This document shows positions 22,039 to 32,778 of a stretch of DNA of 64,000 nt, one piece after another; position 1 is the first letter of the stretch; the number at the start of each line of letters is the position of its first letter. A program made the position numbers and the translations under genes. Below the pieces are notes generated by a model that saw only the letters and a list, made by a program, of their open reading frames with translations, did not search any database and had not been told where the DNA came from. This stretch comes from Brettanomyces bruxellensis (Eukaryota; Ascomycota; Pichiomycetes; Pichiales; Pichiaceae), in contig NC_054690.1 in assembly GCF_011074885.1 (NCBI RefSeq), positions 1,431,001 through 1,495,000 of the forward strand. Direction: 5' to 3'.

Positions 22039-22245
22039 TGTGAGGGATCAATCAAGTACAAGTCACGTGTTATCCAAGTGGTTACGAAATAGTATGAGTG
22101 AAGAAACACGTGGGAATTATTCATTAAAATTGGACGACGAAGTGCAAATATTTTATTAAGCAGAAAAACGAGAAAACATTAAATGAATATTTAGTCTTTT
22201 TGGAAAACTCAAGATGAAGATAAGAAAGAACAAGTAACAGCTTAC

Positions 22246-22437
22246 TGTAAAGTTAGTGTTACCAGATTTATATAGTATTTCGATTTTTTTGTGGTATGTA
22301 ATAAAGAGTATGTATAATGATATAAAAGGGAATATCTTCACTTTATATAGATGTTGTTCTCGTATTAATCAGATGATATAACAATACCATCTTTCCTTAC
22401 TTGAACTCCATTGTTCGAGAGCTTTATTGTTTTGACA
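22246..22437 (+). mobile_element. Family-3 short solo LTR (copy F), 192 bp, nested in LTR A
   Basis: Starts TGTAAAGTTAG and ends TTTTGACA, with canonical TG...CA ends. Flanked by a perfect 5-bp direct repeat CTTAC (22241-22245 and 22438-22442). It is absent from the homologous position in LTR copy B, which runs straight through CAGCTTAG. A homologous 196-bp segment sits in solo LTR C (30604-30799). No internal region of this family occurs in the window, so the element that made it is unknown. Orientation is given as read. Confidence 0.85.
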
Positions 22438-22738
22438 CTTACAGACCAAGAAGATAGAGAAGAATAATAAGAACCGAGATAAGAATAAGAGAAAAGATAA
22501 CAAGAAGATAAAAATAAAAATAAAAAAATAAAAAAAATAAAAACAAAAAGTCATTCAAATAAATATAACATTACTTTAAATTATAAACATATACAAAGGG
22601 GTGCTTTTATCTATATCCTAGTGAATACAAACTAGTTGATTATTTCATTATACATTACTTCCGCACTTACTTAAATTACATCATAACATTCTAAAAACAC
22701 TATTTTACAACATACAATACTTCATCTTTTAGTGGTTT

Positions 22739-23347
22739 TGTCGGACATATGAGAATATTACCTAGTATTAGGTAATCTATTATTATATGTCATTAGATTT
22801 ATTTGTTTTGAGATCTGAACTTATTCTAAAATAACGAAGATTTAGAATAATATCTAATAGAGACAATCCTGGATAAAATGCACTAACTGTGTATGTTAGG
22901 GAATCAGCAGAAAAAATAATTATGCGCGATCATAATTCTGTTTCTGAGAATTAAATCCTTTTTTTTTATGTATGATTACCTCACTTTATTTTCCTTTTTA
23001 TTTTTACTTTACTTTACCTCTTTTTATATAACTTGTTTCTTCTACGAAGGGACGAGACCCGATAGCCTATTTTGCAATACAACTAGTTCGACTCCACTTT
23101 GATGGTAACAGAGTAAAGGAAGTAAATTCATTTTCTTCTATGGTGATACATACACAATTGTTAGAATGTTAAAGGCATTAACATTATCACACAGACCACT
23201 TGGTACATTTATATCCACCCACTTAGGTAACCGACCTTACAATTGTCTGAATCTCCCCGACTGCTAGGTTCTTATTAGTTCTATTAAAGAAGGAGTTTGA
23301 TAGCTAAAGCCCGGGAGTAACTCATAAGGTCTCTCTTAACTCCGACA
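22739..23347 (+). repeat. 5' LTR of the copia element
   Basis: 609 bp, TG...CA ended with 7-bp perfect inverted ends (TGTCGGA/TCCGACA). Contains a TATA-like TTTTTATATAACTTG (about 23020-23035), probably the promoter/R region. Confidence 0.96.
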
Positions 23348-23365
23348 TGGCGTCACAGACAGGAT
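23348..23365 (+). other. Minus-strand primer-binding site
   Basis: TGGCGTCACAGACAGGAT directly abuts the 5' LTR. Its complement reads ATCCTGTCTGTGACGCCA, the shape of a tRNA 3' end: T-arm ATCC, a 7-nt acceptor strand CTGTGAC, discriminator G73 and CCA. G73 suggests tRNA-Ser, but Asp and Asn are also possible. The tRNA itself is not in this window. Confidence 0.75.
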
Positions 23366-23708
23366 AACCAATTTGTGTGATTTTTGTGAAGAGGCAGATG
23401 TGTATGCCATTTTTTTTTTCTTTTGAATTTAGTTGAGAATTCTACGAGAAGGAATTTTTTATTATGTCTACTGAATTTCTCTCAAGAAAAATTCTCACTT
23501 GATGAAAATATTTTCAGGTTATGCCTCCTGGGAAAATTTTCTAAGATCCGTTATGAGTGTTAACAGATTGGGAATTTATGTGAATTGCTGACCATATCGA
23601 TTACATAATCTCATTCATATTATCTTTATCAGCTAGTTTTTAACCAAAGCTTCAGATATATTATCAGCTTAATAGATATACTTTCTACTACTTCATTAAT
23701 TTTTCAAT
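23366..23708 (+). other. 5' leader of the copia element
   Basis: About 340 nt between the primer-binding site and the gag ATG. No ORF or hairpin is evident by eye. Expected to contain packaging signals. Confidence 0.4.
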
Positions 23709-24743
23709 ATGACTTCAAAATTTGCTGAAAACGAAAGGAAACTTACCGAGACCAGAATGTCTCAGATGGAGCGGAAGATCGAAAAGACGATGAAGATGTT
23801 AGCAGATCTCGATGTTTCTGGAGACGATACTAAAGAAGCGAATAGAAAATTGGTCAAGGACCAAATTGCCCCACAGATCCCGATGTTAAAAGATGGAGCT
23901 GCTAGGAGCAACGGTATTTTGTTCATTGAATATTACAATGCCTTAACTAGCGTTTTGGAAGCTCATGACTGTGGTCAGGTGAAGGTGCTTTTTGAAGCGA
24001 ACAAGTCTGATTCTTGCAAAGGATCAACTGAAGCCATTGCCAACGAGGCGATTCGAAGCACGATTGACAGTGCTGTTTATGCGAGGTTGAGAAGACACCA
24101 TTTGAGAATGAAGGGTGAATACCCTACTGCTGTTGGTCTTCTCCACATGTTGCGTGATCGCTATTGGGGATTGAAATATACATCTGAATCATTTATGAAC
24201 GTTTTGGACGATGTCAAGTATGATGATTATAGGAAACCGGTTATTGATTATTTCGATATCATTGACAATATCACTACAGCTATGAAATGGTGTGGTTGTT
24301 ATCACGGGGATACGGATATTTTGGCCCATCTTAGACCCGGTGTCGCTGAATCGATTAAAGGAAATTGTTCAGAATTTGATGAAATAAACGACTTAGTTGA
24401 ATTTAAGAAATGGATCGAAAGAAAAGTCAAGTCTAAACGTAATGCTGCGATTGTTTCGAAGTCGCTTTCCAAGTCAATCTTTGTGACTTCCAACAAGCAA
24501 GGTTATTCCAGCATTTCGAAAAACAAGAAAAGACAAGAGCCGCCGAATAATAACCGTTCGCATGGATCTGATCATCAGAAGAAGGATCAATCTAACAAAG
24601 GCAAGAAGAATGAGAGGAAGGAGAATATGAATAATGTCAAATTGAGCGATGAATCTACTAATATCTCCGAGTTACAAGTCCTAGGCAGCGTGCCAATGGA
24701 TAGTTTGAATACTCCGAGGCATTCGAGATTTTATCTTAATTGA
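23709..24743 (+). CDS. Copia retrotransposon Gag
   Basis: 344 aa, intact, ATG 23709 to TGA 24743. Forms the virus-like particle in related Ty elements. Seen: a Lys/Glu-rich N-terminal coiled-coil-like segment (ERKLTETRMSQMERKIEKT), a hydrophobic core (TAVGLLHMLRDRYWGLKYTS), and a basic Asn/Lys-rich C-terminus (GKKNERKENMNN) that could bind RNA. There is no CCHC zinc knuckle, as in S. cerevisiae Ty1 Gag. The pol frame overlaps the last 35 nt in +1. Confidence 0.92.
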   Translation: MTSKFAENERKLTETRMSQMERKIEKTMKMLADLDVSGDDTKEANRKLVKDQIAPQIPMLKDGAARSNGILFIEYYNALTSVLEAHDCGQVKVLFEANKSDSCKGSTEAIANEAIRSTIDSAVYARLRRHHLRMKGEYPTAVGLLHMLRDRYWGLKYTSESFMNVLDDVKYDDYRKPVIDYFDIIDNITTAMKWCGCYHGDTDILAHLRPGVAESIKGNCSEFDEINDLVEFKKWIERKVKSKRNAAIVSKSLSKSIFVTSNKQGYSSISKNKKRQEPPNNNRSHGSDHQKKDQSNKGKKNERKENMNNVKLSDESTNISELQVLGSVPMDSLNTPRHSRFYLN

Positions 24744-27700
24744 TAATGGCGCTGCCATTAGTCTCACAGGTCATAGGGAATGGCTACATGATTACATGCC
24801 TTTCCGCAAGGACGATAAAGTTTTCTCTGTTGGTTATGACGATAGTCAAAAGAAATTGGAAGGTTCCGGTAGGATAATCTTTAATTACATGGGAAATGTT
24901 CTTACACTCTACCTACACTATTATGAGGGTGCTCCTACTATCTTTTCAGAAGACGATATCAACCGTTGCCCTGAATGCCGAATTCAGACCTATTTTCACG
25001 ATTTTGGTACCAAATCTCAGACTTATTCAAAGGTTCTCAATGTTGGAGATGAATGTATTCAGTTAGTTCAAGTTAACAAGCTATGGTATATACCAGGTGA
25101 TTTTAATCAGTTTATGATTGGTGGAGGACAATTGCATATAAACAACTTACATCTTAAATTGGCTCATGCTAACCCTAGGCTAATCAAAAAGTCTATTAAT
25201 CATGGGACGATTACTGCTTCGAAGAAGGAAATAAAGGAACTTGATGAATTGCTCAGCAAAGGTTGTGTTGATTGTATGGAAGCGAAGGCNAGACGAGCAA
25301 ATGCTATAGAGGGTTCAAGAGACTATTACTTGCGTCCTATTCCTTTTGATGTTGTTTATTCCGATGTTTGCATTGTCAAGACGCACACGAGTGTTGGCGA
25401 AATGGGTTGCTTTGTTACTTTTAAGGACCAATATACTAAGTATACAACGGTTTTTATGATGAAACACAAGAGTGATGTTGCTCGTGCAGTTGATAAATAC
25501 GTTCGATGGGTATCAAACCAATTTAGCAAGGAAGGATACAGAGTGCATAAAATCTTCTCAGATAAAGGTACTGAAATACTTAAATGCTGAATTGAAAACC
25601 ATATTAGAACGTGAAGGTATTGAACTTCATACTACCTCCGGTTATACATCTGCGTCTAATGGTGTTGCTGAACGCTTGAACTTAACGATTATGAATGATG
25701 CGCGTGCCATGTTGCATTCTGGTAAAGTTTCTCACAATTTTTGGAAAGGAAGCTGTGCTATATTCAGTATTTGTCAGGAACAATCTCGTGAATGATAATA
25801 TTGGAACCAGTCCGTCACTTAAACTCAAGTTTATGTCTCCCAAAACTAAGGATTTGCATATCTTTGGTGAACTTTGTGAGGTTACTTACCCTCCGAAATA
25901 CACACCTAAGCTTGGGGAAAGGGCTNTTCAGGGCATATATCTTGGATGGAGCAATGAAACCTTTGGTTGCCAAGTCTTCATCCCGAATACGCCAGGAGAC
26001 ACACGTTACGGGTACATTTACGGATACACGCCATGTTCAATTTATGAACCCGTCTGTACTTTATACAGACTATTTTCTTACACCTCAATCACGCGTGGAT
26101 GATTCATTGCAGTCACTTTATGATCCAAGAATTGAGATTTTTGCCGATCTATCTGCTGATGAATGCATCAAGTGATATTTCTTCTGAGGTGCCGAGTATT
26201 GTTGGATTATCTGAAGGTCAGAATGCGTCATCTATTCCTGTTGACAGAAAGCTCTACGACGATGCTGCTATGGAGAACCGAGCTATCTGAAGATGATGAT
26301 CATTCGATTGTGACAGAGCCCACATTGCGTGCTGGCAGTCCAATTGTATCCAGTTCAGACGATGACTACGAAAGTGATTCTGACTGGGTGCCAGATTCAG
26401 ATGATAATTCAGACATACTGTCTACTACTTCTTCTACGTCTGAGGACTACTCTGATGATATTGAGAGCGCTGCCGACTTACGTGAAGTCTCAAACTCAGA
26501 GGAACCTCAGACTATCCAAGCATCAGACGAGAAGCCTACAGCGGAAACTACTATGCTTTTCGACTTGGATGCAGGAGATCACTCAACTCCTCAACTGCAT
26601 TACAGGAAGCCAAACTTTAAGAAGCCTGCCAAGGGTACTAAACCCAAGAAAGTTTCATCGAAGCCCGCTCCTAATGCGAAGCGTTCACCTATGGTTGGTC
26701 ATGCTGGTAAGATTAAGGGAGCGAAGCATTCAATGCCCCAAGCTCCTAAGGAGAACGTTAAAGCTGAGAGATCTACTGCAACTTCTACTGACGACAACCC
26801 TGTTGTCGGTGGAAAGGAATCGAACAATCTTGCTACTTCCAGAGTGACAGTTCCTGAAAATATGGAAGCACTGAGCACGTTAAATCGTCCGTTGCCCGTG
26901 GTCGAACCTGAGAAATTTGCAGTTTCTGATTCACCAAGTTTAAATGCTGGTGAAAAGGATTATCAGAGACTAACTGGACAACAATCACACGGAGTCCAAG
27001 CATCATACTACGACCAGGCATCTTAACATCCCTTTACAAGCAGAACATGAAGATGATCGAGCATTACTCAACTCGTCATTGGATGGAGAAGTCAATCACT
27101 CTAAGTTACCTCAAGTTACTTCACCTCATGATACTTTGGCGGACAAATCCGGATCCTCTGGCCATAAGATATCATTTCAAGTGATTCCTGCGACTTCTGC
27201 TGGTGAAAAAGTGAAGACCGAGAAGGGTTCAAGCCGTTTGAAACAAGTCCAAATTCTCTTCCTTAGAGCCTTTTAGGACTGGAACTCGTTTATCAAGAAA
27301 ACATACTTATGATGATCTTGTGAATGGGGACACCCGTTCCTCGGTGCCGTTGATTAACAGCACTCCTGGCGAATCTTCTGCTCCTGAGCGTACCTATATG
27401 GTTGCTCGGAAGAAGCCACGGATTTTTCAAGTGTTGTTAAGCGACATTTATCTCGCAGCTAATCCGAAAGGTTACAAACAAGCGAATGTGCAGCAAGGAC
27501 GCTGCAAAATGGAAGGCAGCAATTGATGACGAGTTTCACTCTCATCATATACATAACACATGGGATCGCAATCCAATTCTTACAGATGATCCGAAAATTT
27601 TGAATTGCTGCGTCTCCACAAGTTGGGTTTTTACCGTTAAATCTGATGGTCGACGCAAAGCACGTCTCGTTGCTCGCGGTGATCACCAGAAGGAGAATAC

Positions 27701-29130
27701 ATATTCAATTACATTTTCTCCAACTCTTCGACCAGAGATCATGAGAGCGATTTTTGCTCTTATTGCTACTCAGCATTGGTTTATGGCTCAGTTTGATGTC
27801 AAAACTGCTTATCTATACAGTCCTATTGATACCGAATTGTACATTTAATCAGCCTCAAGGGTATTCTACCCACACAAGGCATGCAAAAGTGCCATCCGGC
27901 ATGAGGGTGGTCTATAAGCTTAACAAAGCTTTATATGGTCTCAAGCAATCGGGCAATTTGTGGCATAAGGAAATTCAGAAACATTTGGCCAAAATTAATT
28001 TTGAAAGTTCCCACCCTTTTCCATCCACCTACATTCATAAGAATCGGAATGGAAAAGTCGATTGCGTTGTTGGTTTATTTGTGGATGACATTATTGTTGG
28101 CGCTTCGAATAAAGCTATACTGGACAAAGTTTACAAACATATATCTGGTAAATATGAGCTTAAAACGATCCAACCTGATAAGAAGACCAATTTACAGAAG
28201 TTTTTGGGGATTGATCTCACTGTGGAAAGATTAAAGGATGGTCGTGTGAAAAAGATTAAGCTATGTCAGTCTGCCTATATCGAAGAATTCGTTGAGAAGC
28301 TTCACCTTACTTTTGCTAGAAGCTGTGCTACTCCGTTAAGTCCAAATTTCTACTTCGATACTGCGGAACATCCGTTAGAAGCTACTAAGGAGATGCTTAA
28401 TAAGGCAGTCAGTGATTTTCGACGCAAAATTGGTTGTTTATTATACGTCGCGGTTATGACAAGGCCTGATATTGCTTATGCTGTTGATTACTTAGCGCGT
28501 TTTTCGACGTATCCTCATCGTCTAGTCGTTGATCAGTTGAAACATGTTTTAAACTACCTCTATCATAGTCGTTTCAAATCTATCATTTATCAACACACTT
28601 CGGAAACTAAAATGGATCATTTGATTTGCTACTCAGATAGTGACTATGCTCAAGATCCGATTACAAGGAAGTCCATGAACGGATTTCTCATCATGTTTTC
28701 GGATGCACCTCTCTATTGGAAGTGCCAGTATACCCCATTGGTCTGCAAGTCATCTACTGAGGCGGAACTTCAGGCAATTTACCTACTTTCTAATGAGCTT
28801 GAATGGTTTCACCCTCTCATGAAGTTCATGTCCGCTTATCAAGGCGAAGGAAATTATCCTGAACTTTTAGTGGATAACAAATCCGCTGTTGATACGATAG
28901 TTTATGGTAACTTTTCACCAAAATCAAAGCCATACGCTGTCAGGTTGAAATGTTTAGAAGAACGATTTGAAGAGAAGCGTTTCATTATCAAACACGTTAG
29001 TACGAAGGACCAGTTAGCTGATATTCTTACTAAACCTATTACTACCAAGGTATTGGGTAAGTTAAGGAGCATGATTATTCAGATGCTACAAATCAAGGGA
29101 GCGTGTCGGACATATGAGAATATTACCTAG
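24709..29130 (+). pseudogene. Copia Pol (PR-IN-RT-RNaseH), reading frame stepped by nine internal +1 shifts
   Basis: Domains in order: protease (LIDNGAAISLTGHREWL), integrase zinc site (LHLKLAHANPRLIKK ... GCVDCMEAK), integrase catalytic Asp, Asp, Glu (VVYSDVCIV, SDKGTE, NGVAERLN), an acidic Ser/Asp-rich linker, reverse transcriptase (LYGLKQSGNLWHKE, FVDDIIVGA) and RNase H (CYSDSDYAQDPITRKS, KSSTEAELQAIY). PR-IN-RT-RH order defines Ty1/copia. The frame moves by +1 at gag/pol and nine more times: near 25574, 25748, 26005, 26170, 26280, 27020, 27260, 27490 and 27845. The last 458-codon block (27754-29130) is open. The terminal codons and TAG lie in the 3' LTR. Whether the shifts are real is uncertain (see findings). 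Confidence 0.85.
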
Positions 29131-29713
29131 TATTAGGTAATCTATTATTATATGTCATTAGATTTATTTGTTTTGAGATCTGAACTTATTCTAAAATAAC
29201 GAAGATTTAGAATAATATCTAATAGAGACAATCCTGGATAAAATGCACTAACTGTGTATGTTAGGGAATCAGCAGAAAAAATAATTATGCGCGATCATAA
29301 TTCTGTTTCTGAGAATTAAATCTTTTTTTTTTATGTATGATTACCTCACTTTATTTTCCTTTTTATTTTTACTTTACTTTACCTCTTTTTATATAACTTG
29401 TTTCTTCCTACGAAGGGACGAGACCCGATAGCCTATTTTGCAATACAACTAGTTCGACTCCACTTTGATGGTAACAGAGTAAAGGAAGTAAATTCATTTT
29501 CTTCTATGGTGATACATACACAATTGTTAGAATGTTAAAGGCATTAACATTATCACACAGACCACTTGGTACATTTATATCCACCCACTTAGGTAACCGA
29601 CCTTACAATTGTCTGAATCTCCCCGACTGCTAGGTTCTTATTAGTTCTATTAAAGAAGGAGTTTGATAGCTAAAGCCCGGGAGTAACTCATAAGGTCTCT
29701 CTTAACTCCGACA
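29104..29713 (+). repeat. 3' LTR of the copia element
   Basis: 610 bp. It differs from the 5' LTR by an extra C (TTCCTACGAAG against TTCTACGAAG) and one C/T change before the T run. Preceded by a short purine-rich AAGGGAG (about 29095-29101), the likely plus-strand primer. Confidence 0.96.
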
Positions 29714-29818
29714 GGTTTGATTCAACACTGCAAAACAAACACACAAATCACTTTGTACTTACATAATCTAAAATAATTTAGGTTCAAATCCAAACAGACC
29801 CCTTACCAAATCGCTATT

Positions 29819-29892
29819 GGTCGGATGGTCTAGTTGGTTATGGCATCTGCTTAACACGCAGAACGTCCCCAGTTCGATCCTGGGTTCGATCA
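29819..29892 (+). tRNA. tV(AAC): tRNA-Val (anticodon AAC)
   Basis: 74 nt, no intron. Acceptor GGTCGGA pairs with TTCGATC (G-U pairs allowed) and the discriminator is A. Anticodon arm CTGCTTAACACGCAG, T arm CCCAGTTCGATCCTGGG with an intact B box. Apart from the acceptor stem and the D loop it reads like yeast tRNA-Val(AAC). Followed by a T7 Pol III terminator (29906-29912). CCA is not encoded. Confidence 0.97.
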
Positions 29893-30522
29893 ATTAAGCA
29901 ATTAATTTTTTTGTCTCTTGGAGACTGCAACCTTATTATTCTCTACTTGCACTTCTTTCTTTATACCAACATATTTAATTTTTATATTACCTTCTTCAGA
30001 TGGAAAATGGGACACCTACAGAATATTGATGGGCTAAACAAATCAGGGGGCTTCATTTTTCTCCTCAAGAAACTCTTGCTGAAAACACTTTTTTTGTGAA
30101 CCAATTTCCTTATCAGATCAGGATTTTTTCGGAGACAAAATCAATTATTCAAAATAATGGTTATATTCTACTTACCTACATTTGCATTTACTGATCTTGG
30201 ATAGCATATGAATTGCTTTTTCAACGTACCGTGCCAAGAACACTAGCCGATGTACGAATGTACAGAGCTTAGGGTGGACACAGGATAGGTCAATTGAAGA
30301 GAAAATTTTATGATGAATAGAGGAAAGACCTTAAAGGGCACATCGCTTTCCAGTGAAATTTCGATGTTTGTTTTACATTTAAGCCGGATGTTGAATTACA
30401 AATGGCTTTCTTTTCTTCCCTGTATACAATTGAAAGGTGCATAAAAAGTTGCCTTTTCTTTTAAAGTATTATACTATAAATATTAGAAAAGCGGCAAAAA
30501 ACAAAGGATTTTTAAATGTAAG
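29893..30522. other. Spacer between tRNA-Val and solo LTR C
   Basis: 630 bp, AT-rich, containing the T7 terminator of tRNA-Val. A 62-codon frame (29911-30099) has no supporting evidence. No LTR terminus was recognised. Confidence 0.4.
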
Positions 30523-31333
30523 TGTTGAACATATGAGGATATTATATAGTATTAGGCAATCTATTATTATATGTCCTTATATTTATTTTTTTTGAGATCC
30601 GAATATTAAATGTAGTGCTACTAAATTAATAGAGTATCTGAATGTTTATTATACTATATTACTAATATGTGAGCTTTAAGCTAATCACCCGTGGATATCT
30701 TAGCTTTACATAGTTGTCATCATTCTCTTGTTTGACGACATAGACAATATAATTTGTTATTCTTAATACTCCATTATTCTATACTTCGTTGCTTTCACAC
30801 TGAACTTATTTTTAAATGAAAAGGATTTAGAATAATATTTATTAGAAGGAATCCTGGACAAATTGTACTAACTGTACATGATAGGGAATCAGCAGAAAAT
30901 TAATTATGCACAATCATAATTCTGTTTCTGGGAATTAAATCTTTTTTTATATTATGTATGATTACCTCACTTTATTTTCCTTTTTATTTTTACTTTACTT
31001 TACCTCTTTTTATATAACTTGTTTCTTCTACGAAGGGACGAGACCCGATAGCCNATTTTGCAATACAACTAGTTCGACTCCACTTTGATGGTAACAGAGT
31101 AAAGGAAGTAAATTCATTTTCTTCTATGGTGACACATACACAATTGTTAGAATGTTAAAGGCATTAACATTATCACACAGACCACTTGGTACATTTATAT
31201 CCACCCACTTAGGTAACCGACCTTACAATTGTCTGAATCTCCCCGACTGCTAGGTTCTTATTAGTTCTATTAAAGAAGGAGTTTGATAGCTAAAGCCCGG
31301 GAGTAACTCATAAGGTCTCTCTTAACTTCGACA
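30523..31333 (+). repeat. Solo LTR of the copia family (copy C), carrying a nested short LTR
   Basis: Begins TGTTGAACATATGAGGATAT and ends CTTAACTTCGACA, matching both termini of the full-length element's LTR. Length is 811 bp, of which 201 bp are the inserted family-3 element plus one copy of its target duplication. The 5' part (to about 30950) is roughly 85% similar to the full-length LTRs, whereas the last about 380 bp are nearly identical. Flanks GTAAG and CGGGA do not form a target duplication. One N at 31054. Confidence 0.93.
30604..30799 (+). mobile_element. Family-3 short solo LTR (copy G), 196 bp, nested in LTR C
   Basis: Interrupts copy C between GATCCGAA and CTTATT of the LTR. Flanked by CCGAA (30599-30603) and CTGAA (30800-30804), a 4-of-5 target duplication. 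Starts TATTAAATGTAG (TG has become TA) and ends TTTCACA. Homologous to copy F: about 22 of 30 identical near the start (TAGTG.TAC.A.ATT.ATA.AGTAT) and recognisable in the second half (ATATCTT, ACTCCATT.TTC). Confidence 0.75.
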
Positions 31334-31436
31334 CGGGATTTATATACTCTGACAAATAATTATAATACAAACATATATTTTATTTGGTTTTCCAGTAAAA
31401 CTTTAGTTTATAGAGAGGCATATAAAATTAAAATTT
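31334..31436. other. Short spacer ending in the AATTT target sequence of LTR E
   Basis: 103 bp, AT-rich. Positions 31432-31436 are AATTT, the left target duplication of LTR E. Confidence 0.5.
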
Positions 31437-32097
31437 TGTAAGGGGTCAAACCAAGCGCATATTGGTTTAAAGCCAGATAAAATATTAATGAATTCATTTA
31501 CCTGATTAGGTAACACGGAAAGATATAAATAGTTTCCGAAATAATTTATGAGAAGCGCGAATAAGAAATAAAGCGTACTGAAAGGATAGTGACCCGAAGG
31601 ACAATAAGAAAGAGCTACATCGGAATAAGCTGACTAATATTCGTGTGGCGACTGCATATGCAAAACAACAGGTTTTTGCATGATCGCGGGTTATGCTGAA
31701 TTCACATAATGTGATGTTCCCAAACAGGATGGATTCCTCTTTGGCATATAATTTGTTATTGTATGAAATTGGAAGAGAAATGGAAGAAGTGTCATTCTCC
31801 ATTTAATATAAATATGCGCCCTTGCCCTCCTTTGATACAGAGGCAAGGTTAAATTATGATTTAGTTATTTTTCTAGAAAGGGAGATTGAAAAGATAAGTG
31901 ATTAGATAGAATAATGAAAAAATATAATAGTTCATAGAGAGCTATGAGATAAGAGATATGAAAGGATACGAAAAGTATCAGATAACAATCTTATTAATCT
32001 ATTATATCTTTAGACGGATTTGGTAATCATCTAAAGAATCCTTATACTTCAGGTTATTAAAAATAATATTTTGTTACCTTCAGTCTGACCATTTACA
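31437..32097 (+). repeat. Family-2 solo LTR (copy E), diverged
   Basis: Starts TGTAAGGGGTCAAAC and ends CTGACCATTTACA; the ends are imperfect inverted repeats and match the termini of copies A and B (TGTGAGGGATC ... GACCCCTTACA). 661 bp, same orientation as B. Flanked by AATTT on both sides (31432-31436, 32098-32102). The interior is largely diverged from A and B, so it is either an older copy or a subfamily member. Boundaries rest on termini plus target duplication, not on full-length similarity. Confidence 0.7.
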
Positions 32098-32102
32098 AAT
32101 TT

Positions 32103-32695
32103 TGTGAGGGATCGAACAAGGAAAAGTCACGTGTTATCCAAATGGTTACGTAATATTATGAGCGAAGCAACATGAGCGAATTATTTATTAAAATTGGACG
32201 ACGAGATGCAAATATTTTATTAAGCAGAAAAACGAGAAAATATTAAATGAGTATTTAGCCTTTTTGGAAAACTCAAGATGAAGATAAGAAAGAAGAAGCA
32301 ACAGCTTAGAAAAAAGAGAATAAGATAGAGAAGAATAAGAACAACAGAGATAAGAATATGAGAAAATATAACAAGAAGATAAAAATAAGAAAAACAAACA
32401 AAACAAATAAAAAACAAGTCATTAAAATAAATATAATAACACTTCAAATTATAAACATATACAAAGGGGTGCTTTTATCTATATCCTAGTGAATACAAAC
32501 TAGTTGATTATTTCATTATACATTACTTCCGCACTTACTTAAATTACATCATAACATTCTAAAAACACTATTTTACAACATACAATACTTCATCTTTTAG
32601 TGGTTTGATTCAACACTGCAAAACAAACACACAAATCACTTTGTACTTACATAATCTAAAATAATTTAGGTTCAAACCAAAGCAGACCCCTTACA
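32103..32695 (+). repeat. Family-2 solo LTR (copy B), uninterrupted reference copy
   Basis: 593 bp, TGTGAGGGATC ... CCCCTTACA, with perfect flanking AATTT (32098-32102 and 32696-32700). It is homologous end to end with the reconstructed copy A. It carries the empty site for the copia element (GTGGTTTGATTCAACACTG around 32602) and for short LTR F (CAGCTTAG near 32303-32310). Its 3' end is 11 nt from tRNA-His. Confidence 0.93.
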
Positions 32696-32706
32696 AATTT
32701 GTAAAA

Positions 32707-32778
32707 GCCGTTCTAGTATAGTGGCTAGTACTCATCGTTGTGGCCGATGCAACCCAGGTTCGATTCCTGGGAACGGCA
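32707..32778 (+). tRNA. tH(GTG): tRNA-His (anticodon GTG)
   Basis: 72 nt, no intron. Acceptor GCCGTTC pairs perfectly with GAACGGC, discriminator A. Anticodon arm TCGTTGTGGCCGA with GTG, T arm CCCAGGTTCGATTCCTGGG. Very close to yeast tRNA-His; the extra 5' G of mature tRNA-His is added after transcription. Followed by a T9 Pol III terminator (32783-32791). Confidence 0.97.

What the first reader, a model, noticed from the sequence alone, without database searches (positions are those of the whole stretch)
22039..32778. An LTR family integrates at one fixed distance (about 11 nt) upstream of tRNA genes
Three family-2 LTRs (A, E, B) end just upstream of a tRNA gene in the same orientation. B ends at 32695 and tRNA-His starts at 32707 (11 nt between). 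A ends at 29806-29807 and tRNA-Val starts at 29819 (11-12 nt between). E ended at the same AATTT that B later used, so it also stood 11 nt from tRNA-His before B arrived. Established knowledge: Ty3 integrates at Pol III start sites with 5-bp duplications. These LTRs have a different size and termini (593-661 bp, TGTRAGGGRTC...), so this may be an independent or distant lineage with single-position targeting.
Basis: partly seen in the sequence, partly recalled or inferred. Interest (0 to 1): 0.76.

Follow-up and report, generated by a model that had tools for sequence, protein, structure and literature searches.

The report
Ty3-like LTRs fixed before tRNA genes
In the beer and wine yeast Brettanomyces bruxellensis, retrotransposons related to baker's yeast Ty3 sit again and again 11 or 12 letters before a tRNA gene, often at the same spot so that old copies stack up; this is a striking new case of a known kind of targeting.

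Summary
The window is from Brettanomyces (Dekkera) bruxellensis. LTRs A and B are one family (F2, about 590 bp); E is a second, related family. Of 40 F2 3' ends listed, 4 are internal to full-length elements. Of the other 36, 20 end 11 or 12 nt before a tRNA gene, 15 abut another LTR (12 after exactly 5 nt, the size of the target duplication), 1 has neither. Starting from tRNA genes instead, 41 of 63 carry an F2 or E-type LTR end 10-12 nt upstream (shuffles: mean 0.04); 2-3 more do on closer reading. Four full-length F2 elements (6,525 bp, identical base for base in this assembly) each sit 12 nt from a different tRNA gene. F2 and E encode Ty3/gypsy Pol; F2 integrase matches Ty3 integrase through the C-terminal domain and vestigial chromodomain that touch TFIIIB in the Ty3 structure. 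So this is a distant relative of Ty3, probably guided by TFIIIB, not an unrelated invention. Differences from Ty3: about 3-7 nt closer to the tRNA, -1 frameshift, about two thirds of sampled tRNA genes occupied, several families reusing one site. The mechanism is inferred from homology; neither transcription starts nor TFIIIB contact were measured.

The parts
22039..22738 (+). LTR A, left part (family F2; long subtype with about 200 extra bp inside)
   Evidence: TGTGAGGGATC start, matches B-LTR positions 1-206 and 217-504 with about 200 unmatched bp between
22739..29713 (+). Ty1/copia element nested in LTR A; its LTRs 22739-23347 and 29104-29713; duplication GGTTT
   Evidence: (RVT_2)
29714..29807 (+). 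LTR A, right part, ends 11-12 nt before tRNA-Val
29819..29893 (+). tRNA-Val(AAC), target of A
   Evidence: (29818), 5' end refined to 29819
31437..32097 (+). LTR E (second family, 661 bp, TGTAAGGGGTC..GACCATTTACA), older insertion at the same nucleotide before tRNA-His
   Evidence: AATTT on both sides
32098..32102 (.). target duplication AATTT shared by E (right copy) and B (left copy)
32103..32695 (+). LTR B (family F2, 593 bp, solo), younger insertion
32696..32700 (.). target duplication AATTT, right copy of B
32707..32778 (+). tRNA-His(GUG), target of E and then B

Best explanation
A, B (family F2) and E are solo LTRs of two related Ty3/gypsy retrotransposon families of B. bruxellensis. Shown: their ends, and those of a third LTR group (F5), lie 11-12 nt upstream of mature tRNA 5' ends, mostly in the tRNA's orientation, with 5-bp duplications where copies are whole; later copies enter at the same spot and push the older LTR away, so that order from the tRNA gives relative age. 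Inferred: as in Ty3, the integrase C-terminal domain and its degenerate chromodomain grip TFIIIB (TBP/Brf1) assembled by TFIIIC on the tRNA gene and act as a ruler for strand transfer; because TFIIIC binds inside the gene, TFIIIB is set at the same distance again on the new LTR DNA and the site is re-made after each insertion.
For: LTR-first: of 40 F2 3' ends, 20 lie at 11 or 12 nt (10 each) from a tRNA gene, 15 abut another LTR (12 at 5 nt, 2 at 4, 1 at 2), 4 are inner ends of full-length elements' 5' LTRs, 1 (C1:4079) has no tRNA found; 9 of the 40 ends were extended by 1-21 nt to the LTR end because the match stopped short. E family: of 21 complete LTRs, 12 abut a tRNA at 11-12 nt (10 by the 3' end, 2 by the 5' end), 5 abut another LTR, 4 neither by the edge list used (two of these 4 do touch an F2 LTR, one is the inner LTR of the full-length E element). 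tRNA-first: 41 of 63. Four full-length F2 elements with 0 differences among them stand 12 nt from four tRNA genes with matching outer duplications; if the identity is real they are too young for selection to have sorted them. Pol order PR-RT-RH-IN; integrase to Ty3 7q5b E=5.7e-96; Foldseek ranks the four Ty3 chains first. Primer site TGGTAGCATCGG complements the 3' end of a host tRNA-Met in both F2 and E.
Against: No TFIIIB contact or Pol III start site was measured. The spacing (11-12 nt) is closer to the tRNA than Ty3's (about 15-18 nt). Identity to Ty3 in the chromodomain is only 19 of 66 residues. One tRNA gene has its LTR end at 23 nt and 18-19 of 63 have none recognisable. Identity of the four full-length copies could be an assembly artefact. 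Some sites may be copies of one event: two tRNA-Trp genes (C3:191782, C2:2038) share the same flank and E-F5 stack.
Confidence: 0.88

Rival explanations
1. The elements insert widely and only copies in this harmless spot survive selection.
For: Many insertions elsewhere in a compact genome could be harmful (general knowledge).
Against: Selection would leave a broad harmless zone, not one or two nucleotides; the four base-identical full-length F2 copies are all at 12 nt; the same nucleotide is used again by later insertions.
Confidence: 0.04
2. tRNA gene plus LTR units were spread by segmental duplication or gene conversion, not by many insertions.
For: Two tRNA-Trp genes (C3:191782, C2:2038) share flank and E-F5 stack, and two tRNA-Val genes (window 29819 and C9:1538987) share flank and LTR family.
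Against: Duplicated tRNA genes with like flanks elsewhere carry different LTR families at the same spot (tRNA-Asp C7:631738 E and C7:634618 F2; tRNA-Leu C9:2486864 F2 and C9:2491781 E; tRNA-Gly C5:136599 F2 and C5:151549 E); many tRNA types and many different 5-nt duplications are involved; both orientations occur.
Confidence: 0.04
3. Position-specific targeting evolved independently of Ty3 and uses another host factor or ruler.
For: Spacing differs from Ty3 by about 3-7 nt; -1 rather than +1 frameshift; separate clade in the integrase tree; Dictyostelium elements show that tRNA targeting can arise repeatedly.
Against: The C-terminal domain and vestigial chromodomain that contact TFIIIB in the Ty3 structure are both alignable and the chromodomain region is predicted as strands plus helix.
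Confidence: 0.08

Closest known systems
Ty3 of Saccharomyces cerevisiae (Ty3/gypsy)
   Same: Pol order, integrase with C-terminal domain and vestigial chromodomain, 5-bp duplication, one narrow position before tRNA genes, initiator tRNA-Met primer (primer of Ty3 recalled)
   Different: Here 11-12 nt from the mature tRNA instead of about 15-18; -1 instead of +1 frameshift; about 65-70% of sampled tRNA genes occupied; several families stacked at one site; integrase 35.5% identical
Tj1 of Schizosaccharomyces japonicus
   Same: Ty3/gypsy, inserts 5-11 bp upstream of mature tRNA 5' ends, 5-bp duplication, orientation with the tRNA (PMC4600332, passages)
   Different: Tj1 orientation was the same in all Pol III inserts of that study; here 38 of 42 LTR ends are in the tRNA orientation and 4 opposite
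PkudTy3A of Pichia kudriavzevii
   Same: Pichiaceae Ty3-like element with -1 frameshift (PMC6053246, one section read)
   Different: No tRNA-distance statement in the passages seen; that element was not tested here
DGLT-A of Dictyostelium
   Same: Ty3/gypsy element upstream of tRNA genes, either orientation (PMC5911963, PMC5006619, passages)
   Different: 13-33 bp window, no chromodomain

Membership tests
Ty3/gypsy (Metaviridae) LTR retrotransposons | Pol order protease-RT-RNase H-integrase | tested here: met
   Pfam on F2 pol: PR 180-293, RT 439-599, RH 687-793, integrase zinc domain 963-1021; integrase core model rve below its cut-off but core aligned to Ty3. E: same order read by eye, integrase 56.8% identical to F2; no domain scan of E
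Ty3/gypsy (Metaviridae) LTR retrotransposons | LTRs TG..CA, 5-bp duplication, tRNA primer site, LTR pair of recent elements alike | tested here: met
   four F2 LTR pairs 0 differences; four outer duplications match
Ty3 targeting type (Pol III start-site specific) | one narrow position upstream of tRNA genes | tested here: met
   gaps 10-12 nt in 41 of 63 tRNA genes
Ty3 targeting type (Pol III start-site specific) | integration 1-4 nt from the Pol III transcription start | not testable with these tools
   start sites of B. bruxellensis tRNA genes unknown here; distance from mature 5' end is 11-12 nt, Ty3 about 15-18
Ty3 targeting type (Pol III start-site specific) | integrase C-terminal domain plus vestigial chromodomain that contact TFIIIB | tested here: met
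   sequence: 22 of 65 (C-terminal domain) and 19 of 66 (chromodomain) identical to 7q5b (limits from PMC8632968, offset assumed); strands and helix predicted at 711-775 of P0003. Presence only; the contact was not tested
Ty3 targeting type (Pol III start-site specific) | dependence on TFIIIB | not testable with these tools
   needs protein work
Ty3 element proper | +1 frameshift between gag and pol | tested here: not met
   pol lies in the -1 frame with heptamer T TTA AAT in the overlap; -1 also reported for PkudTy3A
Ty1/copia | integrase before RT, RT of PF07727 type | tested here: not met
   F2 RT is of RVT_1 type and precedes integrase; the nested element in A is the copia one

The most novel reading that the evidence does not exclude
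The integrase ruler of this Pichiaceae lineage is set about 3-7 nt nearer the tRNA gene than Ty3's, and every insertion re-creates the same landing site on its own LTR end, so most tRNA genes of this yeast now run with retrotransposon-made upstream DNA and carry an ordered record of past insertions of at least three families.
Probability: 0.35. Interest if true: 0.55.

Novelty: new member of a known kind. Interest (0 to 1): 0.42.

Why it matters
It gives a natural data set of position-specific integration in another yeast family, with occupied, stacked and reverse-oriented sites at many tRNA genes. Because the Ty3 complex with TFIIIB is solved, the different spacing with a recognisable but diverged chromodomain makes the 'ruler' idea testable. 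The stacks give an insertion order independent of mutation clocks. I saw no mention of this targeting for B. bruxellensis in the searches made (listings) or in the passages seen of PMC7313668, PMC4999066, PMC6493715 and PMC3314683; the last reports at least 22 Ty3-gypsy-like elements in another strain, without their sites in the passages seen. The library lacks most subscription papers.

Tried and rejected
I first suspected that the copia element recognises a B-box-like motif in the F2 LTR (note). The coordinates did not support that: the 13 copia LTRs within 300 nt upstream of a tRNA lie at 84-108 and 168-203 nt (the bands were drawn after seeing the data, so this is a description, not a test). 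Ty1-like spacing from the tRNA explains the nesting better, though the exact re-use of one nucleotide of the F2 LTR is sharper than spacing alone.

I looked for other Pol III genes (5S, U6) next to LTRs that lacked a tRNA: Rfam at gathering threshold on 17 loci gave 5 matches, all tRNA, so targeting of other Pol III genes is neither shown nor excluded. Gag gave no PDB match. The second-look structural alignment mainly tests the catalytic core and ranks foamy virus integrase level with Ty3; Foldseek ranks Ty3 first but with low whole-model TM-scores (0.19-0.20 of the query), as expected for a multi-domain model of pTM 0.30; I rest the Ty3 link on sequence. Two papers tried, one on Ty3 positions and the hemiascomycete LTR survey, were not held, so Ty3 spacing comes from reviews and the structure paper. 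Searches looked for stacked Ty3 LTRs at tRNA genes and listed 1 and 2 papers, none on this by title or abstract start.

Full report
What is there. The window holds LTR A cut by a copia element (22039-29807), LTR E (31437-32097), LTR B (32103-32695), tRNA-Val at 29819 and tRNA-His at 32707. B ends 11 nt before tRNA-His, A 11-12 nt before tRNA-Val. E and B both carry AATTT as target duplication, so both used the same nucleotide before tRNA-His, E first. A and B are one family (here F2); E is another: the B searches do not return E.

Where it comes from. The window is in contig 9 of a 13.1 Mb genome in 9 contigs. The HUS1-like protein beside tRNA-His is 100% identical to a Brettanomyces bruxellensis protein. 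A published assembly of that yeast lists 99 tRNA genes, 26 LTR elements mostly related to Tdh5, and at least 96 solo LTRs (PMC7313668, passages).

Genome-wide distances, LTR first. A search with the last 171 bp of the F2 LTR gave 40 places (65 candidates, 40 scored, so a lower bound that favours well-kept copies). Twenty 3' ends lie 11 nt (10) or 12 nt (10) before a mature tRNA 5' end in the same orientation; 15 abut another LTR terminus, 12 at 5 nt, 2 at 4 and 1 at 2; 4 are the inner ends of the 5' LTRs of full-length elements; 1 (C1:4079, near a contig end) has no tRNA found. Nine of the 40 ends were extended by 1-21 nt to the LTR end because the match stopped short. LTR partners in this count come, some added by hand. 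For complete E LTRs (21), 12 abut a tRNA at 11-12 nt, 10 by the 3' end and 2 by the 5' end; 5 abut another LTR; 4 neither by the edge list used. Of these 4, one is the inner LTR of the full-length E element and two (C9:2665570, C8:2928826) do touch an F2 LTR by the coordinates.

Genome-wide distances, tRNA first. The Rfam tRNA model listed 63 tRNA genes (725 candidates, 63 scored). I held upstream sequence for all 63, 8 of them with under 40 nt, and looked for the F2 and E ends in both orientations with up to 5 mismatches in 17-18 letters. 42 of 63 have one: 41 at 10-12 nt (1, 21 and 19) and 1 at 23 nt. Shuffled upstream sequences gave a mean of 0.04 and a maximum of 1 of 63 at 10-12 nt over 100 rounds. 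Of the 21 misses, two (C7:659808, C9:864139) had only 28-29 nt fetched and have an E LTR at 12 nt by coordinates, and one (C9:1926431) has a decayed F2 end at 11 nt (6 mismatches). So 43-44 of 63 tRNA genes are occupied. F5 ends are counted with E here, as their last letters agree. A further 19 tRNA genes, reached through LTRs and therefore not an independent sample, are all at 10-12 nt. Orientation: 38 of 42 ends are in the tRNA's direction, 4 opposite (one-sided p 2.8e-8 if independent). The sites are not all independent events: two tRNA-Trp genes (C3:191782, C2:2038) share flank and stack, and two tRNA-Val genes (the window's and C9:1538987) share flank and family. On the other side, three pairs of like tRNA genes with like flanks carry different LTR families at the same spot (Asp, Leu, Gly), as expected of separate insertions.

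Target duplications. Of 45 places listed, 9 lacked a fetched flank; of the other 36, 15 show identical 5-mers. The rest include inner and outer LTRs of full-length elements, which must be compared across the element; there all four F2 elements match (TACTG, AAAAT, CTGGT, GCTGG). The remainder are interrupted, decayed or possibly recombined copies.

Stacks. New copies enter at the same spot, so LTRs line up with about 5 nt between. Before tRNA-Leu at C9:2486864 the order outward is F2, E (reversed), a third group F5 (reversed), and an F2 remnant. Both orders of F2 and E occur (E older at tRNA-His in the window; F2 older at C9:63591 and C9:783003), so the families were active in overlapping periods. 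F5 was seen only through LTRs (about 540 bp, partly alike to E) at tRNA genes C3:191782, C9:1537082 and C2:2038 with 11-12 nt; an F5 element appears to run from C8:2073329 to the tRNA-Arg at C8:2067300, but its inside was not read beyond the region after the primer site.

The element. Four full-length F2 copies of 6,525 bp are identical to each other at every base, LTR pairs included. This means very recent movement, unless the assembly copied one consensus into all four, which I could not check. Stop-to-stop frames are 340 codons (gag) and 1,416 codons (pol). Pol is in the -1 frame with a T TTA AAT heptamer in the overlap; that this is a -1 slip site is read from sequence, not tested. A -1 shift is also reported for PkudTy3A of Pichia kudriavzevii, in contrast to +1 in most Ty elements (PMC6053246, section read). 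The primer site TGGTAGCATCGG fits the 3' end of a tRNA-Met of this genome plus CCA, in F2 and in E; that this tRNA is the initiator is judged from its sequence by recall. Domains are protease, RT, RNase H, integrase. A full-length E copy (C8:538649-543793) also encodes Ty3/gypsy Pol, read by eye and by an integrase match, and stands 11 nt from tRNA-Val.

Relation to Ty3. The integrase piece matches the Ty3 chain of 7q5b with E=5.7e-96. Over 453 aligned residues 161 are identical; 22 of 65 in the C-terminal domain and 19 of 66 in the chromodomain, with limits taken from PMC8632968 and an assumed offset. A predicted model of P0003 (mean pLDDT 74, pTM 0.30, so domains only) has strands and a helix in the chromodomain region, and Foldseek ranks the four Ty3 chains first. 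In the tree F2 and E are sisters (100/98) in a group of 10 rows with Pichia inconspicua, a bin labelled Lactobacillus and unnamed proteins; Ty3 groups with Naumovozyma and Kluyveromyces proteins (100/100); the yeast group as a whole is weakly supported (77/87).

Mechanism. For Ty3, strand transfer at -6 and -2 of the start site gives the 5-bp duplication, TFIIIB is the tether, and the chromodomain is described as a ruler (PMC8632968, passages). With a start about 10-12 nt before the mature tRNA, Ty3 ends would lie about 16-18 nt from it; one paper says about 15 (PMC5006619, passages). Here it is 11-12. Either the start is nearer the tRNA in this yeast or the ruler is set differently; the present data do not decide. 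That the site is re-made on LTR DNA follows from TFIIIC binding inside the tRNA gene (established knowledge) and fits the stacks, but is inference.

Known or new. Ty3-like targeting is known in several yeasts and in Dictyostelium (PMC5911963, passages with its table). This is a new, unusually clear and dense member. I saw no statement of it for Brettanomyces in the searches made or the passages seen; the library lacks most subscription papers.

Noticed in passing
window 22739-29713; C8:603820-610566; C5:136780-143520: A Ty1/copia family lies upstream of tRNA genes, much like Ty1: of 41 listed LTRs, 18 are within 1.4 kb upstream of one of the 82 known tRNA genes, 1 downstream, 22 within 3 kb of none (some of these are the far LTR of an element); the 13 within 300 nt are at 84-108 or 168-203 nt, bands drawn after the fact. 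A paper calls most elements of this yeast Tdh5-like.
   Followed up: partly
F2 LTR position about 426 (C8:603823, C5:136782, C3:70898, C7:894310, C9:63761, C9:1926613, C9:2844471, C3:475424): The copia LTR is nested at the same nucleotide of the F2 LTR at these 8 loci, in both orientations; the duplication TCCGC was read on both sides at two of them.
   Followed up: partly
window 22245-22447 and other F2 copies: Some F2 LTRs carry about 200 extra bp near position 206-230, a long LTR subtype.
   Followed up: no
window 31331-31354; C9:2488857; C9:2666421: A further LTR-like end ..ACACGGGATTTATATACTCTGACA recurs, apparently another element family.
   Followed up: no
window 25290, 25926, 31054: Single unresolved bases (N) lie in the copia element and a nearby copia LTR, and the copia coding frame is in several pieces; described only.
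   Followed up: no
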